Shown: positions 7,107 to 60,258 of the stretch, one piece after another
Position numbering within the stretch: position 1 is the first letter of the stretch
Layout of the letters: each line of letters opens with the position of its first letter
Made by a program: the position numbers and the translations under genes
Notes under the pieces: generated by a model
What the model saw: only the letters and a program-made list of their open reading frames with translations
Database searches by the model: none
Told to the model about the DNA's origin: nothing
Assembly (NCBI GenBank): GCA_021154885.1
Contig: JAJKHS010000143.1
Coordinates: forward strand, 1 to 64,000
DNA from: Thermoanaerobaculum sp.
Lineage (GTDB): Bacteria > Acidobacteriota > Thermoanaerobaculia > Multivoradales > UBA5704
Length of the DNA stretch: 64,000 nt
Reading direction: 5' to 3'

Positions 7107-7231
7107 GGCGGGGATCGTGCCGGGACAGGCTGGAGTATATCCAGAGGAGGATGGCCCCATCTGGCGATATGGCTTTGCGCCGATAAGCTTGCTGGATTGC
7201 TCAATCGAGCGTAGCTTGAGAGCAATCCTCT

Positions 7232-16300: not shown

Positions 16301-19300
16301 CGCGTGGTCGGTCGTCCCGCCGCTGCCGGACGGCGACTCCCCGCCGCAGAGCCGCGGCCAGACCAAGATCCTCCTGGGGGCCAGGAACCCCTTCGAATTC
16401 AACCGGCACACCGGCTCCTCCTGGGAGGAGTGGGTCTCGGACGCCCTGCCGGGCTATCCCTGTGTCCCGGTGCGACCCGGGAAGGAGACCTGCTTCGGCT
16501 TTGGCGGGCTGCAACCTCAGAGCTCCATCCCGTCGCCCTGGACCTTCCCCGGGCCGCCCGCCATCACCCTTTCCTGGGGCTTCGGCCCGGCCACCGTGGG
16601 GACGCGGACCATCACCAGGGACGGCGTGGTCCAGAGGATCCCGCTTCTCTGCTTCCCGGAAGCCGCCGTGCGGCATGGTATTCGTGTGCAGTCGCGGGCT
16701 CCGGGGAGCCGGTTCCGCTTCATTCTGGCGCAGGCTGACGCGGGCCCGATAACCCTCTTCTCGACCGCGGCGCGGGAGATCGCGACTGTCGATGCGGTGC
16801 CGGCCTGCGTCGACGTGCGCCGGCGGGTGGCCGGCACCCTCTCCAACCCCTGGAAGGCGGAGGAGGGGGCCCGCTTCGCAGTGCGCGGTGCCGACGGCGC
16901 GCTCCTCCCCGTCGCCCGGATCGAGCGCTGGGATCAAGGCGAGCTCGGTTTGAACGCCGGCTTCGAGCTCGACGTCGAGCTCCCATGCTCCGCCGCGTGG
17001 GTGACGCTCCTGGTCACTCACCGCCCGCCCTTCCGCATCGTCGCCTACAACGCTGCCGGCACGGCGGTCGCCACCCACGCGCCTTTTGGCACGGGCGGGA
17101 CCTCGACGGAGACGATCCGTCTCGACGGGCCGGCCATCACGCGGGTCGTGGTCTATGCCTCCGGCAGCGAGAAGCTGATCCATCAGGTCTGCTTCTTCTG
17201 TCCGCAGCCCACCGGCCCGTGGGCCAGCGTCGATGGCACCCCCTTCAGCCCCTTCTTCCCAGTCAACGGGGTGATCCAGGTCGACGGTCCCGAGATGCCC
17301 GGTGTGGTGATCACCGGCGACGGTCCCCTCTGCCTGGAGCAGGTCTGCGTCACCCCCGATCCCGAGGCCGGGCAGGTGGTGCGGCAGGACGAGAGGATCC
17401 AGCACCAGATCGACGAGCTCGCCCACTGGCGAGCGGAGGGCGAGGTGCTCGCGCCGGACAGCTTCTACAAGCTGACCGTGAAGACCCATCTCGATCTCGA
17501 CCCCGCAAGCCCCGACCTGGACGGCCTGCCGAGCGACCGCTCGCCGGTCGAGCGCGCCTACTTCCGCACCGGCGGCCCTCCGGGCCTCACCGAGCTCAGC
17601 CGGCCGGCAGGGGGCAACGCCAACAATCCCTTCGAGACCGGGCTGGAGGACCTCACCCGCTACGTGCGGAAGACGACGCCGCCGACCGTGCCGCCGCCGG
17701 GAGAGAAGCCGATCCTCTTCAAGCCGTTCTATCGCGCCTACGATGTGGGGCTGGAATTCAACGAGGACTACGTCGAGCAGATGTATCGCATGGACCGGCG
17801 GGACCTCGGCCTCTATCTCTACGACGCCAGCAACCAGCCGGCGCGGGACGGCTTGGGGCGGCTTCTGGTCCTCAGCGGGCAGTGGGGGACGGCGGAGACG
17901 CTCACCCTGTCGGAGAAGGAGACGCGCTGGATCACGCTGATCGCCGCCGCCACCTGCCTGCCCAAGAAGCTCGATCCTCAGACCTTCCCCAAGGACAGCG
18001 CGCTGACCTCCTCCGATCCGGGGCGCGTGCTCGCTGCCGACACCCTCCACGAGGCGCGGCTGACGCCGCTGCTGCTGCATGAGACCTTCCCGGGGAATGT
18101 CCTGGGGCACGCGCCCGACGGCTGGTCTGTAGAGGATACGGGGCCGGGCGGGTCCTCCAGTTGGCAGGTGGGGGAGGTGGAAGAGCCTCCGAGCCGGTTC
18201 GTGGAGCAGCTCTCGGCGATGGGCGGCATCGTCTCGCCCGACCGGCCGGGCACTCTGCTGCTCCTCGCTGGGGCTGGAGCCTGGACGGACTATCGGGTGA
18301 GCGTCTATCTCCGGGCACCGGCCGGGGCCGTGGGCGTGGTGGTCCGCTATCAGGGGCCGGGTACGGGCTACCGGTTCTCGCTGGATGGCCGGGTCCGCCG
18401 GCTGGTCAAGGGAGGAACGATCCTCCTGGCCGAGGACCACTTCGCGTACCGGAAGAATCGCGATTATCTGGTGACGGTCGAAGCGATCGGCAAGTCCCTG
18501 CGCGCCTATGTGGACGGCGAGCCGGTGTTCGCGGTCGAGGACGGGGATTTCGCCGCGGGCGGCCTCGGCCTCTACTCGTGCCAGAGCCCCGGAGCTCGCT
18601 TTACCGACGCCCGGGTGGACGATCTCGGAAAGGCGGCACCGGTCGTCTACCGGTTCCAGCTCACCACCTCGCTCTACGCCAACTTCGTCCATCACCTCCA
18701 CAGCTTCCAGGACGAGACCTGGAAGGCCGATCTGGGAGCGGATACAGCGGTGGGGGATCTGCTCAACGAGGCCGTGGCGCCCTCTTTCTCGCCTCCCTCG
18801 GAGAAAGAGGCCCGGGCCTACGAGGATCTCGCGACGCGAGCCCTGGGGCCGGCCGCGCGACAGAACCCGGCGCAGGTGGAGGTCACCCGCCTGGAGAAGG
18901 CCGGCGTGCCGGTCGCCTTCCTGCTGCGGAGCCCCGAGCCCCTGGCCTGGGACCGGATCGAATTCGCCCTCTCCGGCACCCTGCGCCATCTCCCGGCGCC
19001 GGAGACCCCCGGCGCGGTGAAGCTCGTCGAGGCCACCTTCGGCGCGGTCCTGCCCGCGGAGGAGTCCGCTGCTCTGCTGCTGCGCGAGGCCACGGACCTC
19101 TCCCGGACTCGCGTCGAGCTGCGCGCCCTGCCGGGCGTGGTAGCCGAGCCGGCGGGCGATCCGGTGCTGCTCTCGGAGCGGTTCGGGGGCGAGCCGGTCG
19201 CCACCCGAGCTCGTTTCACCGTGGTCGATCAAGGGGCGACCGGCGGCCCTTCGGACTGGCGGGTGGAGGGCGGGGCGCTGATCCAGATCTCGGAGATCGG

Positions 19301-44676: not shown

Positions 44677-45060
44677 ATGGCCGACATTCCCCGTCCCACC
44701 GACGCCGAGCTGTCCATCCTCCGGGTGCTGTGGCGCCGCGGCCCGAGCACCGTCAAGGAGGTCCACGACGAGCTCGCGCGCCGCGCTCCCACCGGCTACA
44801 CCACGACCCTGAAGCAGCTCCAGATCATGACGGAGAAGGGGCTGGTGACGCGCGATGAATCCCAGCGGGCCCATCTCTACGTAGCCCGTCTGCCGGAGGA
44901 GCAGACCCAGACGCAGCTCGTGGGGGACCTCCTCGATCGGGCGTTTGAAGGCTCGGCCAGCCGGCTTGTCCTGCGTGCCCTCTCCTCCCGGCCGGCGACG
45001 CCGGGGGAGCTGGCGGAGATCCGTGAACTGTTGGATCGGCTCGAAGGAGATACGAAATGA
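44677..45060 (+). CDS. BlaI/MecI-family transcriptional repressor
   Basis: This 127-aa winged-helix protein has the full BlaI signature: LSILRVLWRRGPSTVKEVHDEL, GYTTTLKQLQIMTEKGLVTR and the dimerisation end LVLRALSS to LDRLEGDTK. Its stop overlaps the ATG of the M56 gene (ATGA), the standard BlaI-BlaR1 arrangement. BlaI represses until the partner membrane metallopeptidase triggers its cleavage. Its probable operators lie in the promoter just upstream. Confidence 0.92.
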   Translation: MADIPRPTDAELSILRVLWRRGPSTVKEVHDELARRAPTGYTTTLKQLQIMTEKGLVTRDESQRAHLYVARLPEEQTQTQLVGDLLDRAFEGSASRLVLRALSSRPATPGELAEIRELLDRLEGDTK

Positions 45061-47057
45061 GCGGGACCGAAACGTCGTGGGCGACCCCCGCGGTCCAGGC
45101 GATCGCCTGGGCCCTGGTTCAATTCCTCTGGCAGGGAGCGCTCGTCGGGCTGGCCGCCGCGGGCGGCTTGAGCCTCCTGAAAAAGAGCTCGGCCGCCCTC
45201 CGCTACGCCGTGGCCGCCGGCGCCCTCCTCCTGATGCTGGCGCTGCCGGTGGGGACGGCCCTGCGGATCGCCGGTTCACCGGGAACGGGCCCCGCCTTTA
45301 CCGGAGCACGTCTTTTTGGACAAACCTCTCCCTCGCCTCCCGGCGGGCCCCCGCTGACAGTTGGGAGGCTGGGAGAAGAGGGCCGGGGTGATGAGGGTCC
45401 CACGACCGTCCGGAATGCCCTCCCGTCCGCCCTGCCCTGGATCTTCGCGCTCTGGCTGGCGGGAGTCGCCCTCCTTTCGGTCTACCACCTGGGCGGCTAT
45501 CGCCAGGCGCGGCGGCTGACGCGGACCGGCCGGCCGCTGGGCCATGACCTGAATGACCTGGAGGCGACAGTGCGCACGCTGGCGAGCCGGCTCGGCGTCG
45601 GGCGGGCCGTCCGGCTCCTCGAATCGGCGGCCGTGCCGGTGCCGGCGGTGATCGGCTGGCTGCGGCCGGTGATCCTGGTCCCGGCGAGCACCCTGGCCGG
45701 CCTTTCGCCGCGGCAGCTCGAAGCCGTCCTGGCCCACGAGCTGGCTCACGTGCGGCGGCACGACTATCTGGTCAACCTCCTGCAGGCGGCGGTGGAGACC
45801 CTCCTCTTCTATCACCCGGCGGTCTGGTGGGTCTCCTCCCAGGTGCGCCGCGAGCGGGAGAACTGCTGCGACGACCTGGCCGTGGCGGTCTGCGGCGACC
45901 GGCTGGGCTACGCCCGCGCCTTGGCGGACCTGGAGGGGTTGCGCGCCCCCTTGCCGCGCCCTGCCTTTGCCGCCATGGCCGCGGATGGCGGCTCCCTCCT
46001 GGACCGCGTCCGCCGTCTGGTGGGCGCCCCGGCCCCCCGCTCCCGCCGCTCCTGGCTGGCCGGTGTCCTCGCCCTGTCGCTCCTCCCCGCCGGGCTGACG
46101 TTCAACGTCGCCCGGGGCGCCGCAGGCTCGGAGGGCTCTGCGGGCTCGGACGCCGCCGTCGGCGCCGGCCACGCGGCTGGCGAGGGGCGTTCCTCCGCTG
46201 AAGGCCGCCAGGGCACCTGGTCGACCGAGCGCCGGGGGGACAAGATCCAGCTCGAGATGTCGATGAGCTGGGACGGCGGCCACCACCGCTGGACGAACGG
46301 GGAGACCTACTCCGCGAAGGACCTCCCCGGCCTCGCCGCCGGCCCGGACGTGCGCTTCGATCTGCGCCGGGACGCTGGGACCTTCCGCTTCGAGGGAAAA
46401 CTCAAGGGCGATCAGGGCAGCGGGTTCTTCACCTTCGCGGGCAACCCCGGCTACGTCCGGGACATGGCTGCTCTTGGATATAAAGTGACAGAGGACCGTC
46501 TCCTGGAGATGGCGACCCATGACATCTCCCTCGCCTTCGTGCGCGAGATCCACGACTCCGGCTACCGCGACGCCTCGCTCGACAAGCTGGTGGAGTTCCG
46601 CATCCACGGCGTGAGCCCCCAGTTCATTCACGAGCTTTCGACGCTCGGCTACCGCAACGTGCCGGCGGATCAGCTCGTCGAGCTCCGCATCCACGGCGTG
46701 TCGGCCGACCTCGTCCGCGAGCTGGCGGCGGACGGCTACCCGAACGTACCGGTCGATCAGCTCGTGCAGCTCAAGATCCACGGCGTGTCGCCCGAATTCA
46801 TCCACGGTCTCGCGGCGAACGGCTACCGCGGCGTGCCGGCGGATGAGCTGGTGCAGTTCCGCATTCACGGCGTGTCGCCCGAGTTCGTCAAGGAGCTGGC
46901 GGACACGGGCTACCGGGGAGTGCGGTCGGATCAGCTCGTGCAGTTCCGCATCCATGGTGTGAACGGCAATTTCATCCGTGAGGCGGTGGGCCGCTATGGC
47001 AAGCTCTCCGCCGACGATCTGGTGCAGTTGAAGATCCGCGGCCGGCTCGACCGCTAG
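45057..47057 (+). CDS. BlaR1-like M56 membrane metallopeptidase with HGV repeats
   Basis: This 666-aa protein has several membrane helices before and after a zinc metallopeptidase motif AHELAHVRRHDY (about residue 226), then ENCCDD, as in BlaR1/MecR1. The usual C-terminal penicillin-binding sensor is absent. Instead residues ~470-660 are a run of ~28-residue repeats with pattern GYxxVPxDQLVxLRIHGVSP. A REP-derived insertion at 45325-45397 adds a Pro/Gly-rich loop in the first part. It is likely the signal-transducing protease for BlaI; the ligand is unknown. Confidence 0.88.
   Translation: MSGTETSWATPAVQAIAWALVQFLWQGALVGLAAAGGLSLLKKSSAALRYAVAAGALLLMLALPVGTALRIAGSPGTGPAFTGARLFGQTSPSPPGGPPLTVGRLGEEGRGDEGPTTVRNALPSALPWIFALWLAGVALLSVYHLGGYRQARRLTRTGRPLGHDLNDLEATVRTLASRLGVGRAVRLLESAAVPVPAVIGWLRPVILVPASTLAGLSPRQLEAVLAHELAHVRRHDYLVNLLQAAVETLLFYHPAVWWVSSQVRRERENCCDDLAVAVCGDRLGYARALADLEGLRAPLPRPAFAAMAADGGSLLDRVRRLVGAPAPRSRRSWLAGVLALSLLPAGLTFNVARGAAGSEGSAGSDAAVGAGHAAGEGRSSAEGRQGTWSTERRGDKIQLEMSMSWDGGHHRWTNGETYSAKDLPGLAAGPDVRFDLRRDAGTFRFEGKLKGDQGSGFFTFAGNPGYVRDMAALGYKVTEDRLLEMATHDISLAFVREIHDSGYRDASLDKLVEFRIHGVSPQFIHELSTLGYRNVPADQLVELRIHGVSADLVRELAADGYPNVPVDQLVQLKIHGVSPEFIHGLAANGYRGVPADELVQFRIHGVSPEFVKELADTGYRGVRSDQLVQFRIHGVNGNFIREAVGRYGKLSADDLVQLKIRGRLDR
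45325..45397. repeat. REP-like element inserted in frame in the first M56 gene
   Basis: Hairpin arms 45325-45341 and 45363-45381 (CCTCTCCCTCGCCTCCC and its near complement) are followed by 27 bp (45371-45397) identical, in inverted orientation, to 26305-26331. It encodes the Pro/Gly-rich region around SPSPPGGPP and GRLGEEGRG of the M56 protein. Confidence 0.8.
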
Positions 47058-47081
47058 GCTCTGAAAAAAAGGAGGGATGAG

Positions 47082-48812
47082 ATGAACGCGATCGATTCTC
47101 CGATGATCCAGGCGGTCCAGGCGGTGGCCTGGGCCCTCGTCCATTTCCTCTGGCAGGGTGCGCTCGCGGGGCTGGCCGCCGCCGGCGTCCTGACCCTGCT
47201 GAAGAACGGCAAGGCCTCCGTCCGCTACGCCGTGGCGGCGGGGTTCCTCCTCCTGATGCTGGCTCTGCCTGTGGCGACGGCCCTGCGCCTTGCCGGCTCG
47301 CCGGTGGCGGGGCCGGCCTTCGCCGGGTCGCCTCTTCTCAAGCCAACCTCTCCCTCTTCTTCCGGCCGACCCCCGCTGATCTTGGGGAGACTGGGAGAAG
47401 AGGGCCGGCCGATCGACGCTCTCCCTCTCGTCCTGCCCTGGGTCTTCGGCCTCTGGGTGGCCGGCGTGGCGGCCCTCTCCGTCTACCACCTGGGCGGCTG
47501 GCGGGTGACCCGCCGGCTCTCCCGTCAGGGCCGCGCGGCCGGCGAGGAGCTGGAGGCTCAGGTGCGGGGCCTCTGCCGGCGCCTGGGGATCGAGCGCGCC
47601 GTGATCCTCCTCGAATCCGCCGCCGTCGCCGTGCCCTCGGTCGTGGGCTGGCTGCGGCCGGTGCTCCTGGTGCCGGCGAGCACGCTCGCGGGCCTGTCGC
47701 CGCGGCAGCTCGAAGCGATCCTGGCCCATGAGCTGGCCCACGTGCGGCGGCACGACTACCTGATGAACCTCCTGCAAACGGCGGTGGAGACCCTGCTCTT
47801 CTATCAACCGGCGGTCTGGTGGGTTTCGAACCAAATGCGCCGCGAGCGCGAGAACTGCTGCGACGATCTGGCCGTGGCGGTCTGCGGCGACCGGCTGGGC
47901 TATGCGCGGGCCTTGGCGGACCTCGAAGGGCTGCGCTCCGCCGGACCCCGGCTGGCAGTCGCCGCCATGGCCGCGGACGGCGGTTCCCTGGCCGACCGCA
48001 TCCGGCGGCTGGTGGGCGTGCCGGCCCGCCGTTCCCCGCGCCGCTCCTGGGTGGCCGGCCTTCTCGCCCTGGCCCTGCTGCCGGCCGGAGCGGCGATCCA
48101 ACTCGCCTGCTCCCACGGCTCCACGTCAAAGCAGGACAGCCAGGCCGCCTCGACCGCGGACCTCGCGGGCACCTGGTCGGGAGAGCTCCAGGGAGACCAG
48201 CTCCGCCTCGAAGTGAAGATGCGCTCCGGGATGGGCCACTGGGGCGTGATGGACAGTTATCCGTTAAGCCAGCTCGCCGGCTTCGCCGCCGGTCCCAACG
48301 CCCGCTTCGAGCTGCGCCGCGACGCCGGCACCTTCCACTTCCAGGGCAGCTTCAAGGACAACCGGGGGAATGGCACCGCGACCTTCAGCCCCGATCCCGA
48401 ATTCGCGCGCCTGATCGACGTATCGCCCGGCAATACGGCCCTCCTGGAGCTCGCGGCGCACGATGTCTCCCTGGGTTACGCCCGCGAGATGAAGGAGCTG
48501 GGATACGTGCGCTCCCTGCGGCAGAGCCGGAGCCTCCACCTCGCATTTATGGGCTACGTCCACGACGTGCTCGGGGTTCGCCCCCCGGCGGTCGACCGGC
48601 TGGTCAGTCTTCATGCCCACGGCGTCACCCCCGACTACGTCCGCGGCATGAAGGCCGCCGGCTACGACCTGGGAACCTGGGAGCTGATCGACTTGCACGA
48701 TCACGGCGTGGACCCCGCCTGGGTCATCCGCGAGGCCCAGAGCCGCGGCCAACGGCCGCTGAAAGTGCCAGAGATTCTCGCCCTCCACGCCCGGCGCGGC
48801 GTCAGCTCGTAG
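47082..48812 (+). CDS. second BlaR1-like M56 membrane metallopeptidase
   Basis: This 576-aa paralogue of the preceding gene starts MNAIDSPMIQAVQAVAWALV, with the same helices, AHELAHVRRHDY, VWWVSNQMRRERENCCDD and RRLVGVPA. The C-terminal part again has HGV segments (SLHAHGVTPDYVRGMKAAGY, DLHDHGVDPAWVI), but the repeats are fewer and degraded. It has no BlaI of its own, so it may answer a different ligand through the same repressor. It lies 25 bp after the first M56 gene. Confidence 0.85.
   Translation: MNAIDSPMIQAVQAVAWALVHFLWQGALAGLAAAGVLTLLKNGKASVRYAVAAGFLLLMLALPVATALRLAGSPVAGPAFAGSPLLKPTSPSSSGRPPLILGRLGEEGRPIDALPLVLPWVFGLWVAGVAALSVYHLGGWRVTRRLSRQGRAAGEELEAQVRGLCRRLGIERAVILLESAAVAVPSVVGWLRPVLLVPASTLAGLSPRQLEAILAHELAHVRRHDYLMNLLQTAVETLLFYQPAVWWVSNQMRRERENCCDDLAVAVCGDRLGYARALADLEGLRSAGPRLAVAAMAADGGSLADRIRRLVGVPARRSPRRSWVAGLLALALLPAGAAIQLACSHGSTSKQDSQAASTADLAGTWSGELQGDQLRLEVKMRSGMGHWGVMDSYPLSQLAGFAAGPNARFELRRDAGTFHFQGSFKDNRGNGTATFSPDPEFARLIDVSPGNTALLELAAHDVSLGYAREMKELGYVRSLRQSRSLHLAFMGYVHDVLGVRPPAVDRLVSLHAHGVTPDYVRGMKAAGYDLGTWELIDLHDHGVDPAWVIREAQSRGQRPLKVPEILALHARRGVSS
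47347..47410. repeat. related REP-like hairpin in the second M56 gene
   Basis: CCTCTCCCTCTTCTTCC and the later GGGAGAAGAGGG (about 47393-47404) form a stem at the position equivalent to the insertion in the first M56 gene. It encodes SPSSSGRPPLILGRLGEEG, so the element predates or accompanied the gene duplication. Confidence 0.65.
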
Positions 48813-50419: not shown

Positions 50420-50605
50420 TCAGCACGCCTCGGTTTCGCAGGGGCTGACGCTGAAGTTGGGATCGCAGGGCGTTTCCGCGGTCAGACAATCCCCAGTCAT
50501 GCAATCGGTCGTGTGCACGGCGCCCACAGCCTCTCTGAGCTCCGGTCCCGCGAGCCTCTGCACGGTCTCCCTGGTCAACGAGAGCTTCTTCGCCTTCTTC
50601 TTCAT
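50420..50605 (-). CDS. class I-type lanthipeptide-like precursor peptide
   Basis: This 61-aa peptide opens MKKKAKKLSLTRETVQRL, the leader type of class I lanthipeptides in Bacteroidota and Acidobacteriota (KKLSL core). The C-terminal half is rich in Cys, Thr and Ser (TTDCMTGDCLTAETPC, SVSPCETEAC) and would be the modified core. AGGAGG lies 5 nt before the ATG. No LanB or LanC is in the window, so its enzymes must be elsewhere. Its promoter and leader are shared in sequence with the TPR gene on the same strand. Confidence 0.65.
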   Translation of the reverse strand: MKKKAKKLSLTRETVQRLAGPELREAVGAVHTTDCMTGDCLTAETPCDPNFSVSPCETEAC

Positions 50606-50655: not shown

Positions 50656-52434
50656 CTACATGTCCTGCATATTGGGTAGGACTTTGCTCCTCCAATTCCG
50701 CTCGAAACGCTCTTTGACGCCCGTGGCTTCGGAGAGGTGCTGTGCCGCAAGGGCCTGCCAGAGCCCGAAGAGCGAGCGGGAGTTGTTGGGGCGGCGCTTC
50801 AGATCCTCGCGAAAGACGAGCTCCGCCTTTTTGAATTCTTGTTTGAGGAAGAGGGAGGAACCGTAGGTCTCGCGGGAAGAGAGATACCACCCGGGCGGCT
50901 CGTCGTAGTCGAGGAGGTCCTCGGTCTCAACGGCCAGCAGCGCAAAGGTTTCGGAGGCGTCCTGGAGGCCCTTCATGCGCGCGATCCGCTCCAGCAGGCG
51001 CCATCTGACGACCGCGAGAATGGCAGAGGCGGAGTTGTTGCCCCAACCGAGCCCGGCGTTCTGTACACAGCTCTGCGCCTGTTGAAAGCTGAAGAGGTCG
51101 TCGTCGGTGGGAAGCCCGAGAGAAGCGTGCGCCATGCCACGACCGAAGTACCACATCGCCGTCGCGAGCTTGTATTTGAGAGCGGCGCAAAACTTCGGGT
51201 CCTTGGGGTTGGGCATGTCGCTCTGCGGCGGCGGGAGCTTGGCAAGCTCCTGCCATTTGCCGAAGTGCACCCTCATGGCGACCTTGGTGGTGAGGTAGTG
51301 CTCCAATCCCGGTTGAGCACGAATGAACTTGCGCACATTTTTCTCGAGCCGCTCGGAGAGCGGCTCGACCTCTCCCCACTCTCCCCGGTTGTTGTAACCG
51401 ACGTCGAGAAAGAGCATGTCGTGACTGTAGTAGTGGCCCACGAGAAGTTGATTGCAAGCGAGAGCGGAGCGCTTTCGGCAGGCCTCGGCCCAGGGCTGAT
51501 CGGCTTCTACGGCGCGCTGATTGGCGGCAACCACCTGGTCCCATTCCCCGAGGAGGAGGAACGTATGGGCAGGCATGTGGCGCAGGTGCGGCGTGATGAA
51601 AGGTGCCTTTTCGACGAGGACCTCGGCGGCGGATCGGGCACTTTCGGCCTGAGCGATCGGAGCTTCTTCCATGGCGTGAATCAGCATGTGGTTGAGCCCG
51701 ATGTGCAAGGGGAAGTCATGGAGGCCGGCTTTGACGACCCGGAGAGCCTCGTCGATCTCGGCCGAAGGCTGGCCGGGGGTGGTCCACCAGAGCCAGGGGC
51801 GAAGGTTCATCAGGCTGTAGGCGTAGAGAGCACCGGCCTCGGGGTCCTGAGAGCCGATCTTTTCGTAAACCGACTTCATGGCGAGCGTGTAATTGACGCT
51901 GAGCTGCTGGGGATCGCGCAAGCGGACGTCGGAGCCGGGACTGGAGCTCGTGCCGTAGCGTTGCGCGAGTGCGTTGATATAGAGCTGCTCCGTCGGAGTG
52001 GCCCGGTTCAGAAGCCGATTCGCCATCTTGCTCTGCTCGACGGCAAGCAGCATGCACTTATCGCCGCCCGGGATGTTCAGGTCGCCGCCGGCGGCTAGGG
52101 CGACGCCCCAGTAGGCCATCGCGAGATTGGGGTCTGCGACCGCGGCTTGATGGAAAGAGCGGAGGGCCGATTCGGAGTCAAAACCATAGAAGAACGTAAG
52201 CCCTTGATTGAAGAACTGTTGGGCACGCGGGTTGGAGGTGCTGACCTTATGGTTGAGGTCGCCCGCTTGATCCAGCGGGAAGAGCGGGATGGGCCCATCG
52301 AACCGTCCGGGCAGGCAGGCGGAGGCGCTGCCGGTGCCGGAATGAGAGTGCATGCCCAGGGAATGCTGGCCGTGAGCGACCACTGGAATTAGCAAGAGAA
52401 AGGATACAGAGGCCACAGCCATTCGTTGCTTCAT
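50656..52434 (-). CDS. secreted TPR-like repeat protein
   Basis: This 592-aa protein has its ATG at 52434, chosen because the signal peptide MKQRMAVASVSFLLLIPVVAHG begins there and AGGAGG lies 6 nt upstream. The body is alpha-helical with TPR-like blocks (QQFFNQGLTFFYGFDSESAL, FHQAAVADPNLAMAYWGVAL and later AELVFREDLKRRPNNSRSLF). Families of this type act in the periplasm or on the surface; the role is unknown. It is followed by the RiPP-like gene on the same strand. Confidence 0.8.
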   Translation of the reverse strand: MKQRMAVASVSFLLLIPVVAHGQHSLGMHSHSGTGSASACLPGRFDGPIPLFPLDQAGDLNHKVSTSNPRAQQFFNQGLTFFYGFDSESALRSFHQAAVADPNLAMAYWGVALAAGGDLNIPGGDKCMLLAVEQSKMANRLLNRATPTEQLYINALAQRYGTSSSPGSDVRLRDPQQLSVNYTLAMKSVYEKIGSQDPEAGALYAYSLMNLRPWLWWTTPGQPSAEIDEALRVVKAGLHDFPLHIGLNHMLIHAMEEAPIAQAESARSAAEVLVEKAPFITPHLRHMPAHTFLLLGEWDQVVAANQRAVEADQPWAEACRKRSALACNQLLVGHYYSHDMLFLDVGYNNRGEWGEVEPLSERLEKNVRKFIRAQPGLEHYLTTKVAMRVHFGKWQELAKLPPPQSDMPNPKDPKFCAALKYKLATAMWYFGRGMAHASLGLPTDDDLFSFQQAQSCVQNAGLGWGNNSASAILAVVRWRLLERIARMKGLQDASETFALLAVETEDLLDYDEPPGWYLSSRETYGSSLFLKQEFKKAELVFREDLKRRPNNSRSLFGLWQALAAQHLSEATGVKERFERNWRSKVLPNMQDM

Positions 52435-52440
52435 GGGCTC

Positions 52441-52472
52441 CCTCCTGTCTGATGGAGCGCCGACTATACCAG
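52441..52472 (-). promoter_or_regulatory. promoter/leader of the TPR gene
   Basis: Same architecture as 50611-50642: extended -10 TGGTATAGT, about 20-nt 5' UTR, AGGAGG. The two leaders are 32 nt each with identical ends. Confidence 0.65.
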
Positions 52473-52563
52473 GAGACCGGGTGAGGGGAGCCCACGGGCC
52501 GAGCTCAAGCAACGGGCATTGCCCCGGTCTTCCCGGTTGGGGGCACCCTTCCTATGGAGCCGT

Positions 52564-52588
52564 GCTCCGCCGCACTCCGTGGCGGAGC
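52564..52588 (+). promoter_or_regulatory. GC hairpin upstream of lanA1
   Basis: GCTCCGCC (52564-52571), 9-nt loop, GGCGGAGC (52581-52588) lies 25 nt before the ATG, just upstream of the AAGGAGG. An identical stem precedes lanA2. Confidence 0.75.
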
Positions 52589-52613
52589 GCCGGCTCGCAA
52601 GGAGGACCTGACC

Positions 52614-52823
52614 ATGAACAAGATCGACGTCATCCGCGCCTGGAAAGACCCTGTCTACCGCGCCGGCCTGAGCCGCGAGGAGATCGCCGCCCTGCCGGGA
52701 CACCCGTCCGGCCTGCTGGAGCTGAACGAGGAGCAGCTCAAGATGGCCGCCGGTGCCATCCTCACCACCTACAAGACCTGCACCGCGTACACCGTCAACC
52801 AGGCCCGGGGGTGCTGCAAATAG
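52614..52823 (+). CDS. lanA1: LanM-type lanthipeptide precursor 1
   Basis: This 69-aa peptide has a mersacidin/lichenicidin-type leader (MNKIDVIRAWKDPVYRAGLS to ELNEEQLKMAAGA), cleavage expected after GA, and core ILTTYKTCTAYTVNQARGCC ending in Lys. Thr and Cys at TTxxxC and the terminal CC give likely methyllanthionine bridges. AAGGAGG precedes the ATG. The first of three precursors before lanM. Confidence 0.85.
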   Translation: MNKIDVIRAWKDPVYRAGLSREEIAALPGHPSGLLELNEEQLKMAAGAILTTYKTCTAYTVNQARGCCK

Positions 52824-52868
52824 GAGCGCGGTCTGCCGCGTGGGGCGCACCCTTAGTGTAGGAGCCCT

Positions 52869-52893
52869 GCTCCGCCGCACTCCGTGGCGGAGC
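52869..52893 (+). promoter_or_regulatory. GC hairpin upstream of lanA2
   Basis: Identical GCTCCGCC...GGCGGAGC stem to the one before lanA1, ~25 nt before the ATG. The surrounding ~80 nt, through the first codons, are also almost the same in both copies. Confidence 0.75.
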
Positions 52894-52918
52894 GCCGGCT
52901 CGCAAGGAGGACCTGACC

Positions 52919-53128
52919 ATGAACAAGATCGACGTCATCCGCGCCTGGAAGGATCCCGTCTACCGCGCCGGCCTGAGCCGCGAGGAGGTCGCCGGCCTGC
53001 CGGGCCATCCGGCCGGCTTCCTGGAGATCAGCGAGGAGCAGCTCAAGTCGGCCTCGGGGGCCCTCATCACGACCGCCAGGGGCTGCACCATGAACTCCTT
53101 CGGCGGCTGGCGGTCCTGCTGCCCGTAG
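52919..53128 (+). CDS. lanA2: LanM-type lanthipeptide precursor 2
   Basis: This 69-aa peptide has the same leader type (MNKIDVIRAWKDPVYRAGLS), with the core after SASGA: LITTARGCTMNSFGGWRSCC ending in Pro. It shares the TTxxxC and terminal CC pattern with its siblings. Near-identical 5' region to lanA1, so a recent duplication. Confidence 0.85.
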   Translation: MNKIDVIRAWKDPVYRAGLSREEVAGLPGHPAGFLEISEEQLKSASGALITTARGCTMNSFGGWRSCCP

Positions 53129-53144
53129 TAACATGGCCACCGCG

Positions 53145-53163
53145 CCCGGCGCGGCGCGCCGGG
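53145..53163 (+). promoter_or_regulatory. GC hairpin upstream of lanA3
   Basis: CCCGGCGC (53145-53152), GGC loop, GCGCCGGG (53156-53163), a perfect 8-bp stem 22 nt before the ATG. The sequence is unlike the lanA1/2 stem but at the same position. Confidence 0.7.
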
Positions 53164-53185
53164 AGCCGCTCGAAAGGAGCTTGAG

Positions 53186-53398
53186 ATGAACCGAGTCGAC
53201 ATCGTGCGGGCCTGGAAAGACCCCCTCTACCGCGCCAGTCTGACCGCCGACGAGCGGGACCGCCTCCCCGGGCATCCGTCCGGCCTCATGGAGATCGAGG
53301 ACGAGCTGCTCAAGTCCGTTGCCGCGGGGGCGCTGACCACCGCGCTGAAGTGCACCGAGTCCAGCTTCAACAACTTCCGGAGCTGCTGCCCGAAGTAG
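53186..53398 (+). CDS. lanA3: LanM-type lanthipeptide precursor 3
   Basis: This 70-aa peptide has a diverged leader (MNRVDIVRAWKDPLYRASLT to LLKSVAAGA), core LTTALKCTESSFNNFRSCC ending PK. It keeps the TTxxxC and CC pattern. It is more distant from the other two and has its own hairpin and an AAAGGAGC ribosome binding site. Confidence 0.85.
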   Translation: MNRVDIVRAWKDPLYRASLTADERDRLPGHPSGLMEIEDELLKSVAAGALTTALKCTESSFNNFRSCCPK

Positions 53399-53407
53399 CC
53401 GTTCCAC

Positions 53408-53428
53408 GCCCGGCCCGCTGGGCCGGGC
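53408..53428 (+). promoter_or_regulatory. GC hairpin upstream of lanM
   Basis: GCCCGGCCC (53408-53416), GCT loop, GGGCCGGGC (53420-53428), then a second stem CCCCGGGGGCC...CCCCGGG before the start. It resembles an attenuator or processing hairpin between lanA3 and lanM and could reduce LanM relative to precursor. There is no long T-run. Confidence 0.65.
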
Positions 53429-53465
53429 TTCCTCTCCCCGGGGGCCTCCCCGGGAGCCGCCGCAG

Positions 53466-56400
53466 ATGCACGAAGCCCTCATCGATCTCACCCCGGGGTA
53501 CCGAGCCCTGGCCCTCGCCGAGCGGGCGGCGGCGCCCCGCAACGGCGCGCTGGCGAAGGCAGCCGCGACGGAGGTCGACGCGCTCGCCCGCCTGCGCCTC
53601 GCGCAGTGGCAGGAGCTCTCGCCCTTCCGCTCGGGCGACGCCTTCGCCCGCCGGCTCGCGGACGACGGGCTCGACGCCGTCTCCTTCGCGCGGCTGTTGG
53701 CGGAGCCCGCCGAGGACGCCGGCGCCCGTCTGCCGCAGACGCCGGCCTGGCTCGCCGAGGTGGCGGCGGCCTTCGCCGAGCCCGGTTCCGCCACGGCGGA
53801 GCCGTTCCCCTGGCCCGAGGAGATGGGCGAGGACTCCGCCGCCGGCTTCGTGGAGCTGGTCCGGCCGCTGGTCGACCGGGCGCGCGCCCGGCTGCGCGCA
53901 GGGATCGAGAGGATCGTCCAGGACCATCAGGACCCTCGCCCGCCGTTCACCGCGGCGGAGGCGGAACGGCTGGTGAGCGAGACGCTCGGCCTGCGCCTGC
54001 TGCCGCTCCTGGCGCGGACGCTGGTGCTGGAGATGCACGTGGCGCGGCTTCAGGGGCTGCTGGCCGGCGAGACCGCGGCGGAGCGCTTCGCCGCCTTCGT
54101 CGAACGCCTGCGCCAGCCCGCGGTCGCCGCCGCGATCCTCAACGAATATCCCGTCCTCGCCCGCCTGGTGGTCGAGGAGCTCGAAACCTGGGTCGCCACT
54201 TCGCTCGAGCTCCTCGCGCGGCTGGCGGCGGACTGGCCGGACCTCGTGGCCACCTTCTTCGCCGGCCAGGACCCCGGCCCCTTGACCGCCCTCGACGGCG
54301 GCGCCGGGGACCGCCACGGCGGCGGCCGCGCCGTGCGCATCTGCGGGCTCGCCTCGGGCGCGAAGCTGGTCTACAAGCCGCGGTCGCTGGCCGTGGACAG
54401 TCACTTCCAGGAGCTCCTCGCCTGCCTGGAATCCCTGGAGTCTCGGGAGTCGGGCAGCGGCCTCTCCTTCCGCCGGCTGGCGGTGCTCGACCGCGGCGAA
54501 TACGGCTGGATGGAATTCGTCGCCGCCAGGGGGTGCGCATCCGCGGCCGAGGTGGCGCTCTATCACCGCCGGCTCGGCGGTCTGCTCGCCGTGCTCTACG
54601 CCCTGGAGGCCACGGACTGCCACTTCGAGAACCTCATCGCGGCGGGAGACCAGCCGGTGGTGGTCGACCTCGAATCGCTGTTCCATCCGCGGATCGACGT
54701 CCCGTCTCCCCCGCGGCCGGACGAACGGCTGGCGGGCCACGCGCTGGCGGAGTCGGTGCTGCGCATCGGGCTCCTCCCCTTCCGCGTCGGCGAGAGCGAC
54801 GAGTTCGACGGCGTCGATCTGAGCGGCGTGGCGGTGGTGGCCGGCCAGCCCTCCCCGCAGCCGGTCCTGCAATGGCAGGGGATCGGGACCGACGAGATGC
54901 GGGCCATTCGCGAGCGGGTCGCGATGGAGGGAGGGAGCAACCGCCCGTCCCTCGACGGCCGCGAGGTCGAAGCCGCCGAGTACACGGACGACATGGCCGC
55001 GGGATTCGCCGAGGTCTACCGCCTGCTGGTCCGCCATCGCGAGGAGCTGCTGGCGCCCGGCGGGCCCGTCGCCCGGTTCGCGGACGATCCGGTGCGGGCG
55101 GTATTGCGCGCCACCCGCGTCTACGGCCTCTTGCTCGGCGAGAGCTTCCACCCCGACGTGCTGCGCGACGCGCTCGACCGCGACCTCCTCTTCGACCGCC
55201 TCTGGGTAGGGGTGGAAGAGGTGCCCGCCCTGGCGCGGGTGGTAGTGCCCGAGCACCGCGACCTGCGTAGCGGCGACATTCCGTCCTTCACGGCCCGCCC
55301 CTCCTCGACCGACCTGTGGACGAGCCGCGGCGAGCGCCTCCCCGGCTTCTTCCGCGACACCGCGCTCGCGGGCGTGCGCCGCCGTCTCCAGGGCCTGAGC
55401 GAGGAGGATTTGCGGCGCCAGCTCGCGCTCCTCCGCCTCGCCCTCGGCACCCAGTTGCTCAACCGCGACGACGTGGGCTGGCAGGGCTACGCCGAAGCCG
55501 ATCCCGGCCCGCCGCTCGCGCCGGCAGAGCTGCGCCGGCGGCTCGTCGCCGCCGCCCGCGCGGTGGGGGAGTGGTTCGCGGACCAGGCCCTGCGCGATGA
55601 CCGCGAAGATCGCGATGACGATCACGCCACCTGGATCGGCCTCGAATACCGCAACCGCCTCTGGTCCATGGTGCCCGCGCCCGAGGACCTGTATGCGGGC
55701 CTGCCGGGGATCGCCCTCTTCCTCGGCTACCTCGGCGCGGTCACCGGCGAGGAGCGCTGGACCGCCCTCGCGCGGGCGGCGATGAATTCCCTGCTGGCGC
55801 GCTTCGAGGACGCGCCGGCGAGCACCGCGAAGCCCGCCTCCGGCCCCGAAGCGATCGGCGCCTTCTCCGGCTGGGGGGGCATCCTCTACGCCGCCGCTCA
55901 CCTGGGCTCGCTGTGGCACGACCCGGACCTCCTCGCCACGGCGGAGCGGCTGGCCGAGAAGATCCCGCCCCGCATCGAGAGCGACGAGGACCTCGACGTC
56001 GTCGGCGGTGCGGCCGGCGCCATCCTCGGCCTCCTGGCCCTCCACCGCGCCGCCGGCTCGCGCCGCGCCCTCGCCGTGGCCGTCCTCTGCGGCGAGCGTC
56101 TGCTCGCCCGGTCCCAGCCGGCGGGTCCGGGACTCGGGTGGCTCACGCGGCTCGCCACGGAGCGGCCGCAGATCGGTTTCTCCCATGGCAACGCCGGCAT
56201 CGGTCTCGCACTGGTCGAGCTGGGCGCGACGGCCGGCGACGCCCGCTTCCTCGCGGCGGGCCTGGCGGCCTGGGACTGGGAGCGGGAGGCCTTCTGGCCC
56301 GAGCTGCGGCGCTGGCTCGCCGGCGGCGACGGCCAGTCGCCGCCGCCCGAAAGCACGGTGGCCGTGGCCTGGTGCTACGGCGCCCCGGGCGTCGGCCTCG

Positions 56401-56816
56401 CGCGGCTCAAGGCCCTGGCCCACGTCCGCGAGCCCGCGGCCCGGCGCGCGCTGCTGGAGGAGCTGACGGAAGCCGTGCAGAAGACCGTCGAGCACGGCTT
56501 CGGCGAGAACCATTGCCAATGCCACGGCGACCTGGGCAACCTCGACTTCCTTCTCCAGGCCCGCCAGTCCCTGGGCGATCCGGCCCTGGACGACGCGATC
56601 GACCGCCAGACCCGGATCGTCCTCGCCAGCATCGCCCGCGACGGCTGGCTCTGCGGCACGCGCGGAGGCGTCGAATCGCCCGGCCTGATGAACGGCTTCG
56701 CCGGCATTGGCTACGGCCTCCTGCGCCTCGCCGATCCCGGGCGGGTACCGTCGGTGCTGGCGCTGGAGCCTCCCGCCGGGACCCCTGGGACCGCCGGCGT
56801 CCCGCCGGCTTGCTAA
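53466..56816 (+). CDS. lanM: class II lanthipeptide synthetase LanM
   Basis: This 1116-aa protein has an N-terminal ~650-residue dehydratase (DUF4135) with VYKPRSLAVDSHFQELLA, YGWMEFV, DCHFENLIAAGDQPVVVDLES. The C-terminal LanC-like cyclase shows GFSHGNAGIGLALVELG, VAWCYGAPGVGLARLKAL and NHCQCHGDLGN, giving zinc ligands Cys (WCYG) and Cys-His (CHG). It dehydrates Ser/Thr in LanA and forms thioether rings. No LanT or LanP is adjacent. The last 12 or so residues (TPGTAGVPPAC) come from a palindromic repeat. Confidence 0.92.
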   Translation: MHEALIDLTPGYRALALAERAAAPRNGALAKAAATEVDALARLRLAQWQELSPFRSGDAFARRLADDGLDAVSFARLLAEPAEDAGARLPQTPAWLAEVAAAFAEPGSATAEPFPWPEEMGEDSAAGFVELVRPLVDRARARLRAGIERIVQDHQDPRPPFTAAEAERLVSETLGLRLLPLLARTLVLEMHVARLQGLLAGETAAERFAAFVERLRQPAVAAAILNEYPVLARLVVEELETWVATSLELLARLAADWPDLVATFFAGQDPGPLTALDGGAGDRHGGGRAVRICGLASGAKLVYKPRSLAVDSHFQELLACLESLESRESGSGLSFRRLAVLDRGEYGWMEFVAARGCASAAEVALYHRRLGGLLAVLYALEATDCHFENLIAAGDQPVVVDLESLFHPRIDVPSPPRPDERLAGHALAESVLRIGLLPFRVGESDEFDGVDLSGVAVVAGQPSPQPVLQWQGIGTDEMRAIRERVAMEGGSNRPSLDGREVEAAEYTDDMAAGFAEVYRLLVRHREELLAPGGPVARFADDPVRAVLRATRVYGLLLGESFHPDVLRDALDRDLLFDRLWVGVEEVPALARVVVPEHRDLRSGDIPSFTARPSSTDLWTSRGERLPGFFRDTALAGVRRRLQGLSEEDLRRQLALLRLALGTQLLNRDDVGWQGYAEADPGPPLAPAELRRRLVAAARAVGEWFADQALRDDREDRDDDHATWIGLEYRNRLWSMVPAPEDLYAGLPGIALFLGYLGAVTGEERWTALARAAMNSLLARFEDAPASTAKPASGPEAIGAFSGWGGILYAAAHLGSLWHDPDLLATAERLAEKIPPRIESDEDLDVVGGAAGAILGLLALHRAAGSRRALAVAVLCGERLLARSQPAGPGLGWLTRLATERPQIGFSHGNAGIGLALVELGATAGDARFLAAGLAAWDWEREAFWPELRRWLAGGDGQSPPPESTVAVAWCYGAPGVGLARLKALAHVREPAARRALLEELTEAVQKTVEHGFGENHCQCHGDLGNLDFLLQARQSLGDPALDDAIDRQTRIVLASIARDGWLCGTRGGVESPGLMNGFAGIGYGLLRLADPGRVPSVLALEPPAGTPGTAGVPPAC

Positions 56817-56922: not shown

Positions 56923-59900
56923 TTGAAGCCACGGATCCTCATCCCCCTTTTCCTCCTCCTCCCCTGCGCCGTTTGGGCAGAGGAGATTGGCTATTACCGC
57001 TTCCCGGCCCTGCACGGCGACACGGTCGTGTTCGCGGCCGAAGGCGATCTCTGGCGCGTGGGGCGCCAGGGCGGGACGGCGACGCGGCTGACCACGCATC
57101 CGGCCGAAGAGTCGAATCCCGCCATCTCGCCGGACGGTAAGACGATCGCCTTCTCGGCCGCCTACGAAGGACCCACCGAGATCTACACCATGCCCATCGA
57201 CGGCGGCCTGCCGGTGCGTCGCACGTTCGAAGGCGGCGATGCGCGGGTGGTCGGGTGGATGCCCGGCGGCGAGATCCTCTATTCGACTCGCCACGGGTCG
57301 GGCCTGCCGGCCACGCAGCTCGTCCGCCTCGATCCGGCGACGGGCAAGAGCGCGCTTCTACCCCTGGCCCAGGCCGCCGACGGCGAATTCACTCCGGACG
57401 GCAAGACGCTGTTCTTCACCCGCTTCGCCTTCCAGGGGAGCCACACCAAGCGCTACCGCGGCGGCACGGCCCAGAGCCTCTGGCGCTACCGCGAGGGCGA
57501 TGCCGAGGCCGTCCCCCTCACCGCCGATTTCGACGGCACCAGCCGCGAGCCCATGCTCTGGCAGGGGCGCGTCTACTTCGTCTCCGACCGCGACGGCACC
57601 CACAACCTGTGGTCCATGGACCAGGACGGCCACGACCTCAAGCAGCTCACCTCCCACCGCGGTTGGGAGGTGGCCTCACCCAGCCTCTCGGACGGCCGCA
57701 TCGTCTATCAGCTCGGAGCCGACCTGCGGATCTACGACGTCGCGGCGGGCAGGGACGAGCCGCTCCCCGTCCGCCTCGTCTCGGATTTCGACCAGATGCG
57801 GGAGACGTGGATCAAGGAGCCGCTGGAGTACCTCACCTCGGCCGACCTCTCGCCCGCCGGCGACCGGCTCGCGCTGACGGCCCGCGGCCAGGTGTTCGTG
57901 GTGCCGGTGAAGAAGGGACGGATCGTGGAGGTCACCCGCAAGCCCGGCGTGCGCTACCGCGAGGCCCGCTTCCTCGCCGACGGCAAGGGCGTGCTCGCCC
58001 TCTCCGACGAGACCGGCGAGGTGGAGCTGTGGAAGTTCCCGGCCAACGGCGTGGGCAAGCCCGAGCCGCTCACGTCCGACGGCAAGGTGCTGCGCTGGGA
58101 GGGTGTCCCCTCGCCCGACGGCAAATGGATCGCCCATCGCGACAAGGATCGCCAGCTCTGGCTCCTGAACGTGAAGACCCGCAAGAACAGCCGCATCGCC
58201 GTCTCGGCCGACGGCGACTTCCAGGACCTCCACTGGTCGCCGGACGGCCGCTGGCTGGCCTGGGCCGTCTCCGCCACCAACACCTTCCTGCGGATCTATC
58301 TCTACGACACCACCAACGGCCGCACCGTGCCCCTCACCTCCGAGCGCTTCAACAGTTGGAGCCCCGCCTGGAGCCAGGACGGCAAGTGGCTCTGGTTCCT
58401 CTCCGACCGCGAGCTGCGGACCCTGGTCCCGGGGCCCTGGGGGCCGCGCCAGCCCGACCCCTTCCTGACGGCGACCACCAAGATCTTCGGCGCCGCCCTG
58501 AAGAAGGGGCTGCGTTCGCCCTTCCAACCGCCGGACGAGCTCCATCCGGAGGAAAAGGACGAGAAGGACGGCAAGAAGGAGAAGGAGGCGAAGGAGGACA
58601 AGGACGAGAAGGAGACCGCGGAGACTGGCACGGCCAAGGCCGCGGCGCCCAAAGTGGACAAAGTGGAGATCGACCTCGACGGCCTGTCGGAGAGGCTCGT
58701 CGAGGTGCCGGTGGAGGCCGGCAATTACGACTCCCTCTCGGCCAATGAGGACCGGCTGTTCTGGCTGCAGTCCGATCCCTCCTTCGCGGACGAGCCCGCC
58801 TCGTCCCTGCTGACGGTGGCCTTCGACGGCGAGAAGCCCAAGGCCAAGACGTTGATCGAGGGGATCGCCGACTACCAGCTCTCAGACGATGGCAAGAAGC
58901 TGCTGGTGCACAAAGAGAAGGCCCTCTACGTCTTCGGCGCCGGCGAGGAGGCGCCCGACGAGCTCGACGAGGCGAAGGTGGACCTCTCCGGCTGGACCTT
59001 TCCCATCGATCCCAGGGAACAGTGGCGCCAGATGTTCCGTGAGGCGTGGCGCCTGGAGCGTGACTACTTCTACGACCCCAAGATGCACGGCGTGGACTGG
59101 CCCGCCATGCTGGAGAAGTACCGCCCCCTGTCACTGCGGGTGACGAGCCGGCCTGAGCTCAACGACCTGCTGGCGCAGATGGTGAGCGAGCTTTCGGCCC
59201 TGCACACCTTCGTCCATGGCGGCGACCGGCGCAAGGGGGACGCCGACGTGGACGTGGCCTCGCTGGGGGCCGTGCTGACCCGTGACGAGAAGCGCGGCGG
59301 CTACCACGTGGACCGCCTCTATGCCTGGGACCCGGACCTCCCGGCCGACGCGCCGCCGCTGGCCATGCCCGGCGTCGACGTCAAGGCGGGCGACGTCATC
59401 GAATCGATCAACGGCGTTTCAACTCTGTCGGTGCCCGACGCCGGCCTGCTGCTGCGCAACCAGGCGAACCGGCAGGTGCTGCTGCGCGTGCACGACGCCA
59501 AGATCCGCGCCGCGCGCGACGTGGTGGTGGTCCCGGTCTCCCCGAAGCAGGAGGGGGACCTGCGCTATACGGACTGGGAGCTCTCCCGCCGGCGGCTGGT
59601 GGAGGAGAAGGGGAAGAGCCAGATCGGCTACCTCCACCTGCGAGCCATGAGCAGCGAGGACTACACGAGTTGGGCGCGGGACTTCTACCCGGTCTTCGAT
59701 CGCCAGGGGCTGATCCTCGACCTGCGCAACAATCGCGGCGGCAACATCGAGAGCTGGCTGCTCGGCAAGCTCCAGCGCAAGGCGTGGTTCTGGTGGCAGC
59801 CGCGGGTGGGCACGCCCTATTCGAACATGCAGTACGCCTTCCGCGGCCACGTGGTGGTACTGGTCAACGAGAACACCAGCTCGGACGGCGAAGCCTTCGC

Positions 59901-60258
59901 CGAGGGCGTCAAGCGCCTGGGGCTGGGCAAGGTGATCGGCACCCGCACCTGGGGCGGTGAGATCTGGCTGAGCGCGTCCAACGTCCTGGTGGACAAGGGG
60001 ATCGCCACCGCCGCCGAGTTCGGCGTCTTCGGTCCCGAAGGGACCTGGCTGATCGAAGGCCACGGCGTCGATCCCGACATGGTGAAAGACAACCTCCCCC
60101 ACGCCACCTTCCTCGGCGGCGACGCCCAGCTCGACGCCGCGATCGCGTATCTCCAGGAGGAGATCAAGAAAAACCCCGTGCCGCCGGTGAAGACGCCGGA
60201 GTATCCGAACAAGTCGGGGCGGCGTAGCGGGGAGGGGAACGGAAGGGGAAACCCGTGA
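56923..60258 (+). CDS. Tricorn-type protease with PDZ and S41 domains
   Basis: This 1111-aa protein starts with TTG and a signal peptide (PRILIPLFLLLPCAVWA). The N-terminal half is a WD40-like propeller of PD40 blocks (NPAISPDGKTIAFSA, PAWSQDGKWLWFLSDR). Then a Lys/Glu-rich linker of ~45 residues, a C1 region, a PDZ domain (DVKAGDVIESINGVSTLSVP), and an S41 peptidase domain with Ser in ENTSSDGEAFAEG (about residue 986). Tricorn proteases trim peptides in the periplasm or outside the cell. It follows lanM at ~106 bp beyond a long inverted repeat. Role in lanthipeptide maturation is only speculation. Confidence 0.88.
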   Translation: MKPRILIPLFLLLPCAVWAEEIGYYRFPALHGDTVVFAAEGDLWRVGRQGGTATRLTTHPAEESNPAISPDGKTIAFSAAYEGPTEIYTMPIDGGLPVRRTFEGGDARVVGWMPGGEILYSTRHGSGLPATQLVRLDPATGKSALLPLAQAADGEFTPDGKTLFFTRFAFQGSHTKRYRGGTAQSLWRYREGDAEAVPLTADFDGTSREPMLWQGRVYFVSDRDGTHNLWSMDQDGHDLKQLTSHRGWEVASPSLSDGRIVYQLGADLRIYDVAAGRDEPLPVRLVSDFDQMRETWIKEPLEYLTSADLSPAGDRLALTARGQVFVVPVKKGRIVEVTRKPGVRYREARFLADGKGVLALSDETGEVELWKFPANGVGKPEPLTSDGKVLRWEGVPSPDGKWIAHRDKDRQLWLLNVKTRKNSRIAVSADGDFQDLHWSPDGRWLAWAVSATNTFLRIYLYDTTNGRTVPLTSERFNSWSPAWSQDGKWLWFLSDRELRTLVPGPWGPRQPDPFLTATTKIFGAALKKGLRSPFQPPDELHPEEKDEKDGKKEKEAKEDKDEKETAETGTAKAAAPKVDKVEIDLDGLSERLVEVPVEAGNYDSLSANEDRLFWLQSDPSFADEPASSLLTVAFDGEKPKAKTLIEGIADYQLSDDGKKLLVHKEKALYVFGAGEEAPDELDEAKVDLSGWTFPIDPREQWRQMFREAWRLERDYFYDPKMHGVDWPAMLEKYRPLSLRVTSRPELNDLLAQMVSELSALHTFVHGGDRRKGDADVDVASLGAVLTRDEKRGGYHVDRLYAWDPDLPADAPPLAMPGVDVKAGDVIESINGVSTLSVPDAGLLLRNQANRQVLLRVHDAKIRAARDVVVVPVSPKQEGDLRYTDWELSRRRLVEEKGKSQIGYLHLRAMSSEDYTSWARDFYPVFDRQGLILDLRNNRGGNIESWLLGKLQRKAWFWWQPRVGTPYSNMQYAFRGHVVVLVNENTSSDGEAFAEGVKRLGLGKVIGTRTWGGEIWLSASNVLVDKGIATAAEFGVFGPEGTWLIEGHGVDPDMVKDNLPHATFLGGDAQLDAAIAYLQEEIKKNPVPPVKTPEYPNKSGRRSGEGNGRGNP

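What the first reader, a model, noticed from the sequence alone, without database searches (positions are those of the whole stretch)
52564..56816. Three-precursor class II lanthipeptide locus without transporter or protease
LanM with three LanA, all with TTxxxC and terminal CC cores. No LanT/LanP nearby. Cores look unlike known lantibiotics to me and could be new.
Basis: partly seen in the sequence, partly recalled or inferred. Interest (0 to 1): 0.6.

Follow-up and report, generated by a model that had tools for sequence, protein, structure and literature searches.

The report
Three-peptide lanthipeptide operon, exporter elsewhere
A soil acidobacterium carries a small, real gene cluster that most likely makes three related ring-shaped peptides with lacticin-481-like spacing; it has no exporter of its own, and a sister cluster in the same genome fuses two such peptides behind one leader, which may be new for this peptide class.

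Summary
Confirmed: window 52614-56816 is a four-gene class II lanthipeptide operon, A1-A2-A3-LanM. All three leaders pass the TIGR03898 (mersacidin/lichenicidin) cut-off. LanM matches TIGR03897 (E 5e-273) and aligns with LicM2 and CylM with the kinase-type and zinc-site residues in place. No LanT or LanP was found in the 64 kb. This is not an assembly gap: a same-genus genome has the orthologous A1-LanM, also without LanT on either side. The genome has three C39-ABC exporters elsewhere. One (contig C83, with an HlyD-like partner) is conserved in both same-genus genomes, so export in trans is the best reading. "Unlike known lantibiotics" is only half right: all cores share the exact T-x4-C-x3-[S/T]-x6-CC spacing of lacticin 481 and nukacin (about 0.5% of shuffles do), but carry another leader family and lack the acidic residue before the first Cys, so lipid II binding is doubtful. 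Orthologous cores are conserved while paralogous cores diverge: distinct products under selection. Unexpected: a paralogous cluster (contig C141), gp7 AA5, another same-class genome and a planctomycete have one leader followed by two tandem cores, which a 2026 paper says was unreported for lanthipeptides. New variant of a known kind; chemistry untested.

The parts
52614..52823 (+). lanA1, 69 aa; leader 1-48 (ends AAGA), predicted core ILTTYKTCTAYTVNQARGCCK
   Evidence: TIGR03898 E 1.4e-18; orthologues with near-identical core in G457 (L067) and G458 (L184)
52919..53128 (+). lanA2, 69 aa; leader 1-48 (ends ASGA), predicted core LITTARGCTMNSFGGWRSCCP
   Evidence: TIGR03898 E 2.1e-18, sub-threshold lacticin 481 family hit E 0.0056; duplicate of A1: leader 87.5%, core 57% nt identity
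53186..53398 (+). lanA3, 70 aa; leader 1-49 (ends AAGA), predicted core LTTALKCTESSFNNFRSCCPK
   Evidence: TIGR03898 E 1.8e-17; orthologue G458:C323 core TTALKCTESSYNNFRSCCP
53466..56816 (+). lanM, 1116 aa; DUF4135 dehydratase domain (228-610) and LanC-like cyclase domain (737-1098)
   Evidence: TIGR03897 E 4.8e-273; PF13575 and PF05147; LicM2 6st5 E 1e-122 and CylM 5dzt E 1.4e-48; active-site positions
52548..52605 (+). strong RNA hairpin just upstream of A1; its stem pairs the ribosome-binding site (role unknown)
   Evidence: MFE -44.4 kcal/mol, z -5.9; 25-nt inverted-repeat core occurs only here and before A2 in the 8.2 Mb genome; not seen in relatives tested
52851..52910 (+). second copy of the hairpin, upstream of A2 (part of the A1/A2 duplication unit)
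   Evidence: MFE -36.6, z -4.0

Best explanation
A1, A2, A3 and LanM are an operon for three class II lanthipeptides. LanM binds the mersacidin/lichenicidin-type leader, dehydrates Ser/Thr in each 21-residue core (5, 5 and 6 candidates) and closes up to three thioether rings with the three Cys: probably one of the two N-terminal Thr (-5 or -4) to the first Cys, the other to one Cys of the CC pair, and Ser/Thr(+4) to the other, as in lacticin 481. The modified precursors are exported and cut after the GA motif by a C39-ABC exporter encoded elsewhere; the C83 exporter with its HlyD-like partner is the first candidate, the C45 LanT the second. The three products are distinct, arose by duplication followed by core divergence, and A1 and A3 are conserved within the genus. 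Shown here: genes, leader family, catalytic residues, spacing, conservation, absence of a local exporter. Inferred: modification, ring connectivity, trans export. Bioactivity is unknown; competition with Gram-positive neighbours is plausible, but the lipid II signature is incomplete.
For: HMMs: TIGR03898 x3, TIGR03897, DUF4135 + LANC. CylM positions D252, H254, K274, D347, H349, N352, D364 (PMC4550811) align with D282, H284, K304, D384, H386, N389, D401; zinc-type C970 and C1019-H1020 present (zinc-ligand roles from general knowledge). All 13 listed family cores and five lacticin 481-family peptides fit T/S-x4-C-x3-S/T-x6-CC; 0.4-0.8% of shuffled cores do (references). Orthologous cores differ at 1-2 of 18 residues while leaders differ at 9-18 of 45; paralogous cores differ at 7-11 of 18. 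The six acidobacterial CC-core LanMs form one clade (SH-aLRT 99). LanT beside LanM or LanA in more distant members (G092, G201, G404; OFTM49 on the same contig) shows that C39-ABC export is normal for the family. C83 exporter 84% and 79% identical in G457 and G458.
Against: No chemistry is shown. NF040664 (lacticin 481) matches only A2, well under cut-off. More distant family members have five or fewer residues between Ser/Thr(+4) and CC, so the lacticin spacing is not universal in the family. The C83 exporter lies about 7 kb from a LanB gene and may serve other peptides. The G457 and G458 MAGs are fragmented, so a LanT elsewhere in them could be missing.
Confidence: 0.75

Rival explanations
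1. Same lanthipeptide operon, but exported by the C45 LanT that sits beside another LanM in this genome, or by the NHLM exporter on C81.
For: C45 carries precursor-LanM-C39 ABC in order; C45 and C83 transporters are 60% identical. C81 is a full NHLM exporter with its HlyD.
Against: No C45-type second exporter was found in G457 or G458, which also have the A1-LanM pair; only the C83 orthologue was found as a full-strength C39 match. NHLM exporters are associated with other leaders (general knowledge).
Confidence: 0.3
2. A decaying cluster: LanT was lost and the products stay inside or are not made.
For: No local LanT or LanP; orphan CC-core precursors without LanM exist in AA152 and G458:C323.
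Against: LanM is intact with its active-site residues; A1 and A3 cores are conserved across species while leaders drift; the LanT-less arrangement is shared by G458 in a different gene neighbourhood.
Confidence: 0.12
3. The adjacent tricorn-like S41 protease (56923-60258, 106 bp downstream) is the leader peptidase.
For: Same strand, close, a protease with Tricorn_C1, PDZ and S41 domains.
Against: No homologue was found beside the LanM in G458, C141, G092, gp22, G404 or OFTM49. It is not of the known LanP (S8) or C39 types.
Confidence: 0.07

Closest known systems
Lacticin 481 / nukacin ISK-1 group (type AII; NF040664)
   Same: Class II LanM; identical core spacing T-x4-C-x3-S/T-x6-CC; short 3-Cys core ending in CC; A2 even shares M-N-S after the first Cys
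   Different: Different leader family; TT instead of T-x-S/T; no Glu/Asp before the first Cys; conserved Thr after the first Cys; no N-terminal KGGSG-type extension; HMM below cut-off
Mersacidin/lichenicidin-type leader family (TIGR03898), found here in cyanobacteria, chloroflexi, planctomycetes and acidobacteria
   Same: Leader passes the family cut-off in all three precursors; GA at the expected cleavage site
   Different: Cores unlike mersacidin or lichenicidin; among 118 precursors compared only the acidobacterial and one planctomycetal relatives share this core
Lanthipeptide systems with unclustered genes (prochlorosins, PMC10783134; hidden proteases, PMC8960859)
   Same: One LanM with several divergent cores; export/protease genes or precursors elsewhere in the genome
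   Different: TIGR03898 leader instead of Nif11; only three linked precursors, plus possible distant ones
CC-core clusters of gp22 acidobacteria, G092 and G404 (found here)
   Same: LanM of the same lineage (45-56% identity) and TTxxxCT...CC cores
   Different: These keep a LanT next to LanM or LanA; most have shorter spacing before CC; G404 has two cores per precursor

Membership tests
Class II lanthipeptide system | LanM with DUF4135 dehydratase and LanC cyclase domains | tested here: met
Class II lanthipeptide system | Dehydratase and zinc-site residues intact | tested here: met
   alignment to CylM/LicM2, positions, roles from PMC4550811
Class II lanthipeptide system | Adjacent LanA with leader, double-Gly-type site and Ser/Thr/Cys core | tested here: met
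Class II lanthipeptide system | Thioether rings in the product | not testable with these tools
   needs mass spectrometry
TIGR03898 mersacidin/lichenicidin-type precursor | Score above the curated cut-off | tested here: met
   63-66.5 bits against 23.5
Lacticin 481 family (NF040664) | Score above the curated cut-off | tested here: not met
   A2 16.8 bits against 46; A1 and A3 not listed
Lacticin 481 family (NF040664) | Core spacing T/S-x4-C-x3-S/T-x6-CC | tested here: met
Lacticin 481 family (NF040664) | Mersacidin-like lipid II motif T-x-S/T-x-E/D-C | tested here: not met
   residue before the first Cys is T, G or K in A1-A3
Class II cluster with dedicated LanT | C39-ABC gene in the locus | tested here: not met
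   nearest C39 genes are on other contigs; also absent beside LanM in G458

The most novel reading that the evidence does not exclude
This lineage is the first documented case of multi-core lanthipeptide precursors: one leader directs LanM over two complete cores (C141 LanA in this genome, both L066 precursors of gp7 AA5, G404, planctomycete OFTM49), giving either two peptides or one two-headed peptide, while the window cluster shows the alternative route of gene duplication.
Probability: 0.5. Interest if true: 0.65.

Novelty: new variant of a known kind. Interest (0 to 1): 0.42.

Why it matters
It joins a widespread leader type to a lacticin-481-like core layout outside the Firmicutes and Actinobacteria where that core family is mostly reported (PMC7268733). 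The genus offers a clean test of an exporter acting in trans. Single-core and tandem-core precursors made by closely related LanMs in one genome let one ask how LanM handles two cores behind one leader, a strategy that PMC13343206 says had not been reported for lanthipeptides.

Tried and rejected
Tricorn-like S41 protease as LanP: not conserved beside related LanMs. Upstream hairpin as a conserved regulatory RNA: unique to A1/A2 and not found upstream of A3, C141 LanA or G457 A1. Sigma-70 promoter and terminator scan gave nothing above chance. A phylum search centred on the planctomycete was not possible. Structure prediction was not run: HMM and PDB sequence matches already fix the LanM fold. 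Recent plasmid origin: best plasmid LanMs are only about 40% identical.

Full report
WHAT IS THERE. The window is contig C143 of an 8.2 Mb, 161-contig genome; one same-genus genome (G457) carries the same contigs as the public MAG 'Acidobacteria bacterium isolate gp7 AA5', so the organism is a relative of gp7 soil acidobacteria. At 52614-56816 lie three short genes and one long one on the + strand: A1, A2, A3 and LanM. A1-A3 have clear ribosome-binding sites; the gaps between genes are 57-95 bp. Upstream, a TPR-like gene (50656-52512; description from reading, no Pfam match) runs the other way; downstream, 106 bp after LanM, a tricorn-like protease gene starts.

IDENTITY. All three leaders pass the NCBIfam TIGR03898 cut-off by far, and LanM passes TIGR03897. 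LanM has the DUF4135 and LanC-like domains and aligns with LicM2 (E 1e-122) and CylM (E 1.4e-48) among solved structures. Residues tested as catalytic in CylM (PMC4550811) are present at the aligned positions D282, H284, K304, D384, H386, N389 and D401; the LanC-type Cys/Cys-His set is present (C970, C1019, H1020). The enzyme is expected to work.

THE CORES. Cut after GA, the three cores are 21 residues each with three Cys. They follow TT-x3-C-T-x2-[S/T]-x6-CC. I fetched real lacticin 481-family precursors from plasmids. Five of six, including lacticin 481 and the nukacin-type peptide of pPI-1, fit the same pattern T/S-x4-C-x3-S/T-x6-CC, as do all 13 listed cores of this family; 0.4-0.8% of shuffled cores fit. 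So the cores are not unlike known lantibiotics in layout. They differ in having TT instead of T-x-S/T, a conserved Thr after the first Cys, no Glu/Asp just before it, and another leader family. PMC11877530 links lipid II binding of this group to a motif that includes that Glu; lipid II binding here is therefore doubtful. The family HMM NF040664 is not reached, so I do not file them as members. Ring connectivity is inferred from spacing only.

SELECTION. A1 and A2 are a recent duplication: about 81% identity over 80 bp upstream, 87.5% in the leader, 57% in the core, with 14 amino-acid-changing codon differences of 21 in the core. Between species it is the reverse: A1 of this genome, G457 and G458 differ at only 2 of 18 core residues in every pair, and A3 against its G458 orthologue at 1 of 18, while leaders differ at 9-18 of 45. 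Cores diverge between paralogues and are held between orthologues, the mark of distinct selected products (shown for A1 and A3; no A2 orthologue was found).

RELATIVES. A profile search of 396 genomes of the phylum and 149 of the class, plus a scan of 84,980 species genomes, found this core only in acidobacteria (own genus, gp22, AA152, G092, G404) and one planctomycete, OFTM49. In a tree of 74 LanMs the six acidobacterial CC-core enzymes then in hand form one clade (SH-aLRT 99), with the planctomycete one and one further LanM of this genome (C126) next to it.

THE MISSING LanT. In G092, gp22 (G201) and G404 a C39-ABC gene sits beside LanM or LanA, and in OFTM49 one lies on the same contig. 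In this genus it does not: not in the window, and not in G458, where 5 kb on one side and 6.7 kb on the other of the A1-LanM pair are readable and hold ordinary genes. The genome has three C39-ABC exporters elsewhere: C45, next to another LanM; C81, an NHLM exporter with its HlyD; and C83, with an HlyD-like partner. C83 is the one found in both same-genus genomes, 84% and 79% identical (the second over 332 residues), its partner 70% identical in G457. The leaders here end in GA, as C39 peptidases require (general knowledge). Trans export by C83 is the best reading, C45 the second; this step is inference. PMC8960859 reports that about a third of lanthipeptide clusters lack protease genes, so the lack itself is not rare.

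TANDEM CORES. A paralogous cluster in this genome (C141, LanM 58% identical) has a single LanA whose leader is followed by two complete cores, TTAPNCTNYTFLHWRSCC and TTAINCTEYTFNSAAGCC. The same design appears in two precursors of gp7 AA5 (L066), in G404 (TTAITCTATLGGCC and TTAITCTATMGGCC) and in planctomycete OFTM49. [quoted passage not shown] The linker is only a few residues, so the product may be one peptide with two ring modules rather than two peptides.

GENOME CONTEXT. The genome gives 16 LanC-like matches, six LanM (DUF4135) matches (one probably split between contigs C156 and C30), three LanB, seven TIGR03898 precursors, a HopA1-LanC protein and a RamC-type LanKC: a lanthipeptide-rich genome.

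VERDICT. As a cluster it is a new variant of a known kind. The tandem-core sister precursors are what a specialist would not expect. No chemistry has been shown.

Noticed in passing
L014 (G000:C141) 3815-4099; L066 7043-7639; L186 3500-3769 (minus); L070 from 10001: Single LanA precursors with two tandem complete cores behind one leader, in this genome and in related or distant genomes.
   Followed up: partly
window 50420-50605, minus strand: Short ORF MKKKAKKLSLTRETVQRLAGPELREAVGAVHTTDCMTGDCLTAETPCDPNFSVSPCETEAC resembling a class I lanthipeptide leader (lant_leader_L1a, E 0.008, under cut-off) with a Cys/Thr-rich core; no LanB in the window, three elsewhere in the genome.
   Followed up: partly
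window 52548-52605 and 52851-52910: Two copies of a strong hairpin that pairs the ribosome-binding sites of A1 and A2; the inverted repeat is unique in the genome. Possible translational control or just the duplication unit.
   Followed up: partly
G177 / AA152 (L154, L155): CC-core precursors in a MAG (87% complete) with no LanM and no C39 gene found: orphan precursors or missing contigs.
   Followed up: no
L012 (G000:C45) 14251-16602: HopA1-LanC two-domain protein a few kb from a LanA-LanM-LanT cluster, possibly a class V-like lanthipeptide enzyme.
   Followed up: no
L012 (G000:C45), precursor ending at 5167: LanA with a very Cys-rich core (GGTSCAVSCCSDCCNSCSSGTRPLCCC), unlike the other cores.
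   Followed up: no
L026 (G000:C83) 6180-10398: C39-ABC exporter next to a protein joining an N-terminal regulator-like part (weak NifA-type match) with an HlyD/RND adaptor part; conserved in the genus.
   Followed up: partly
window 45057-48812: Two adjacent BlaR1-type M56 peptidase genes; a similar gene lies near the LanM of G458 (L184 10748-12739).
   Followed up: no
window 13335-21293: A 2652-aa protein with only weak Pfam matches (3-keto-disaccharide hydrolase, DUF6603).
   Followed up: no
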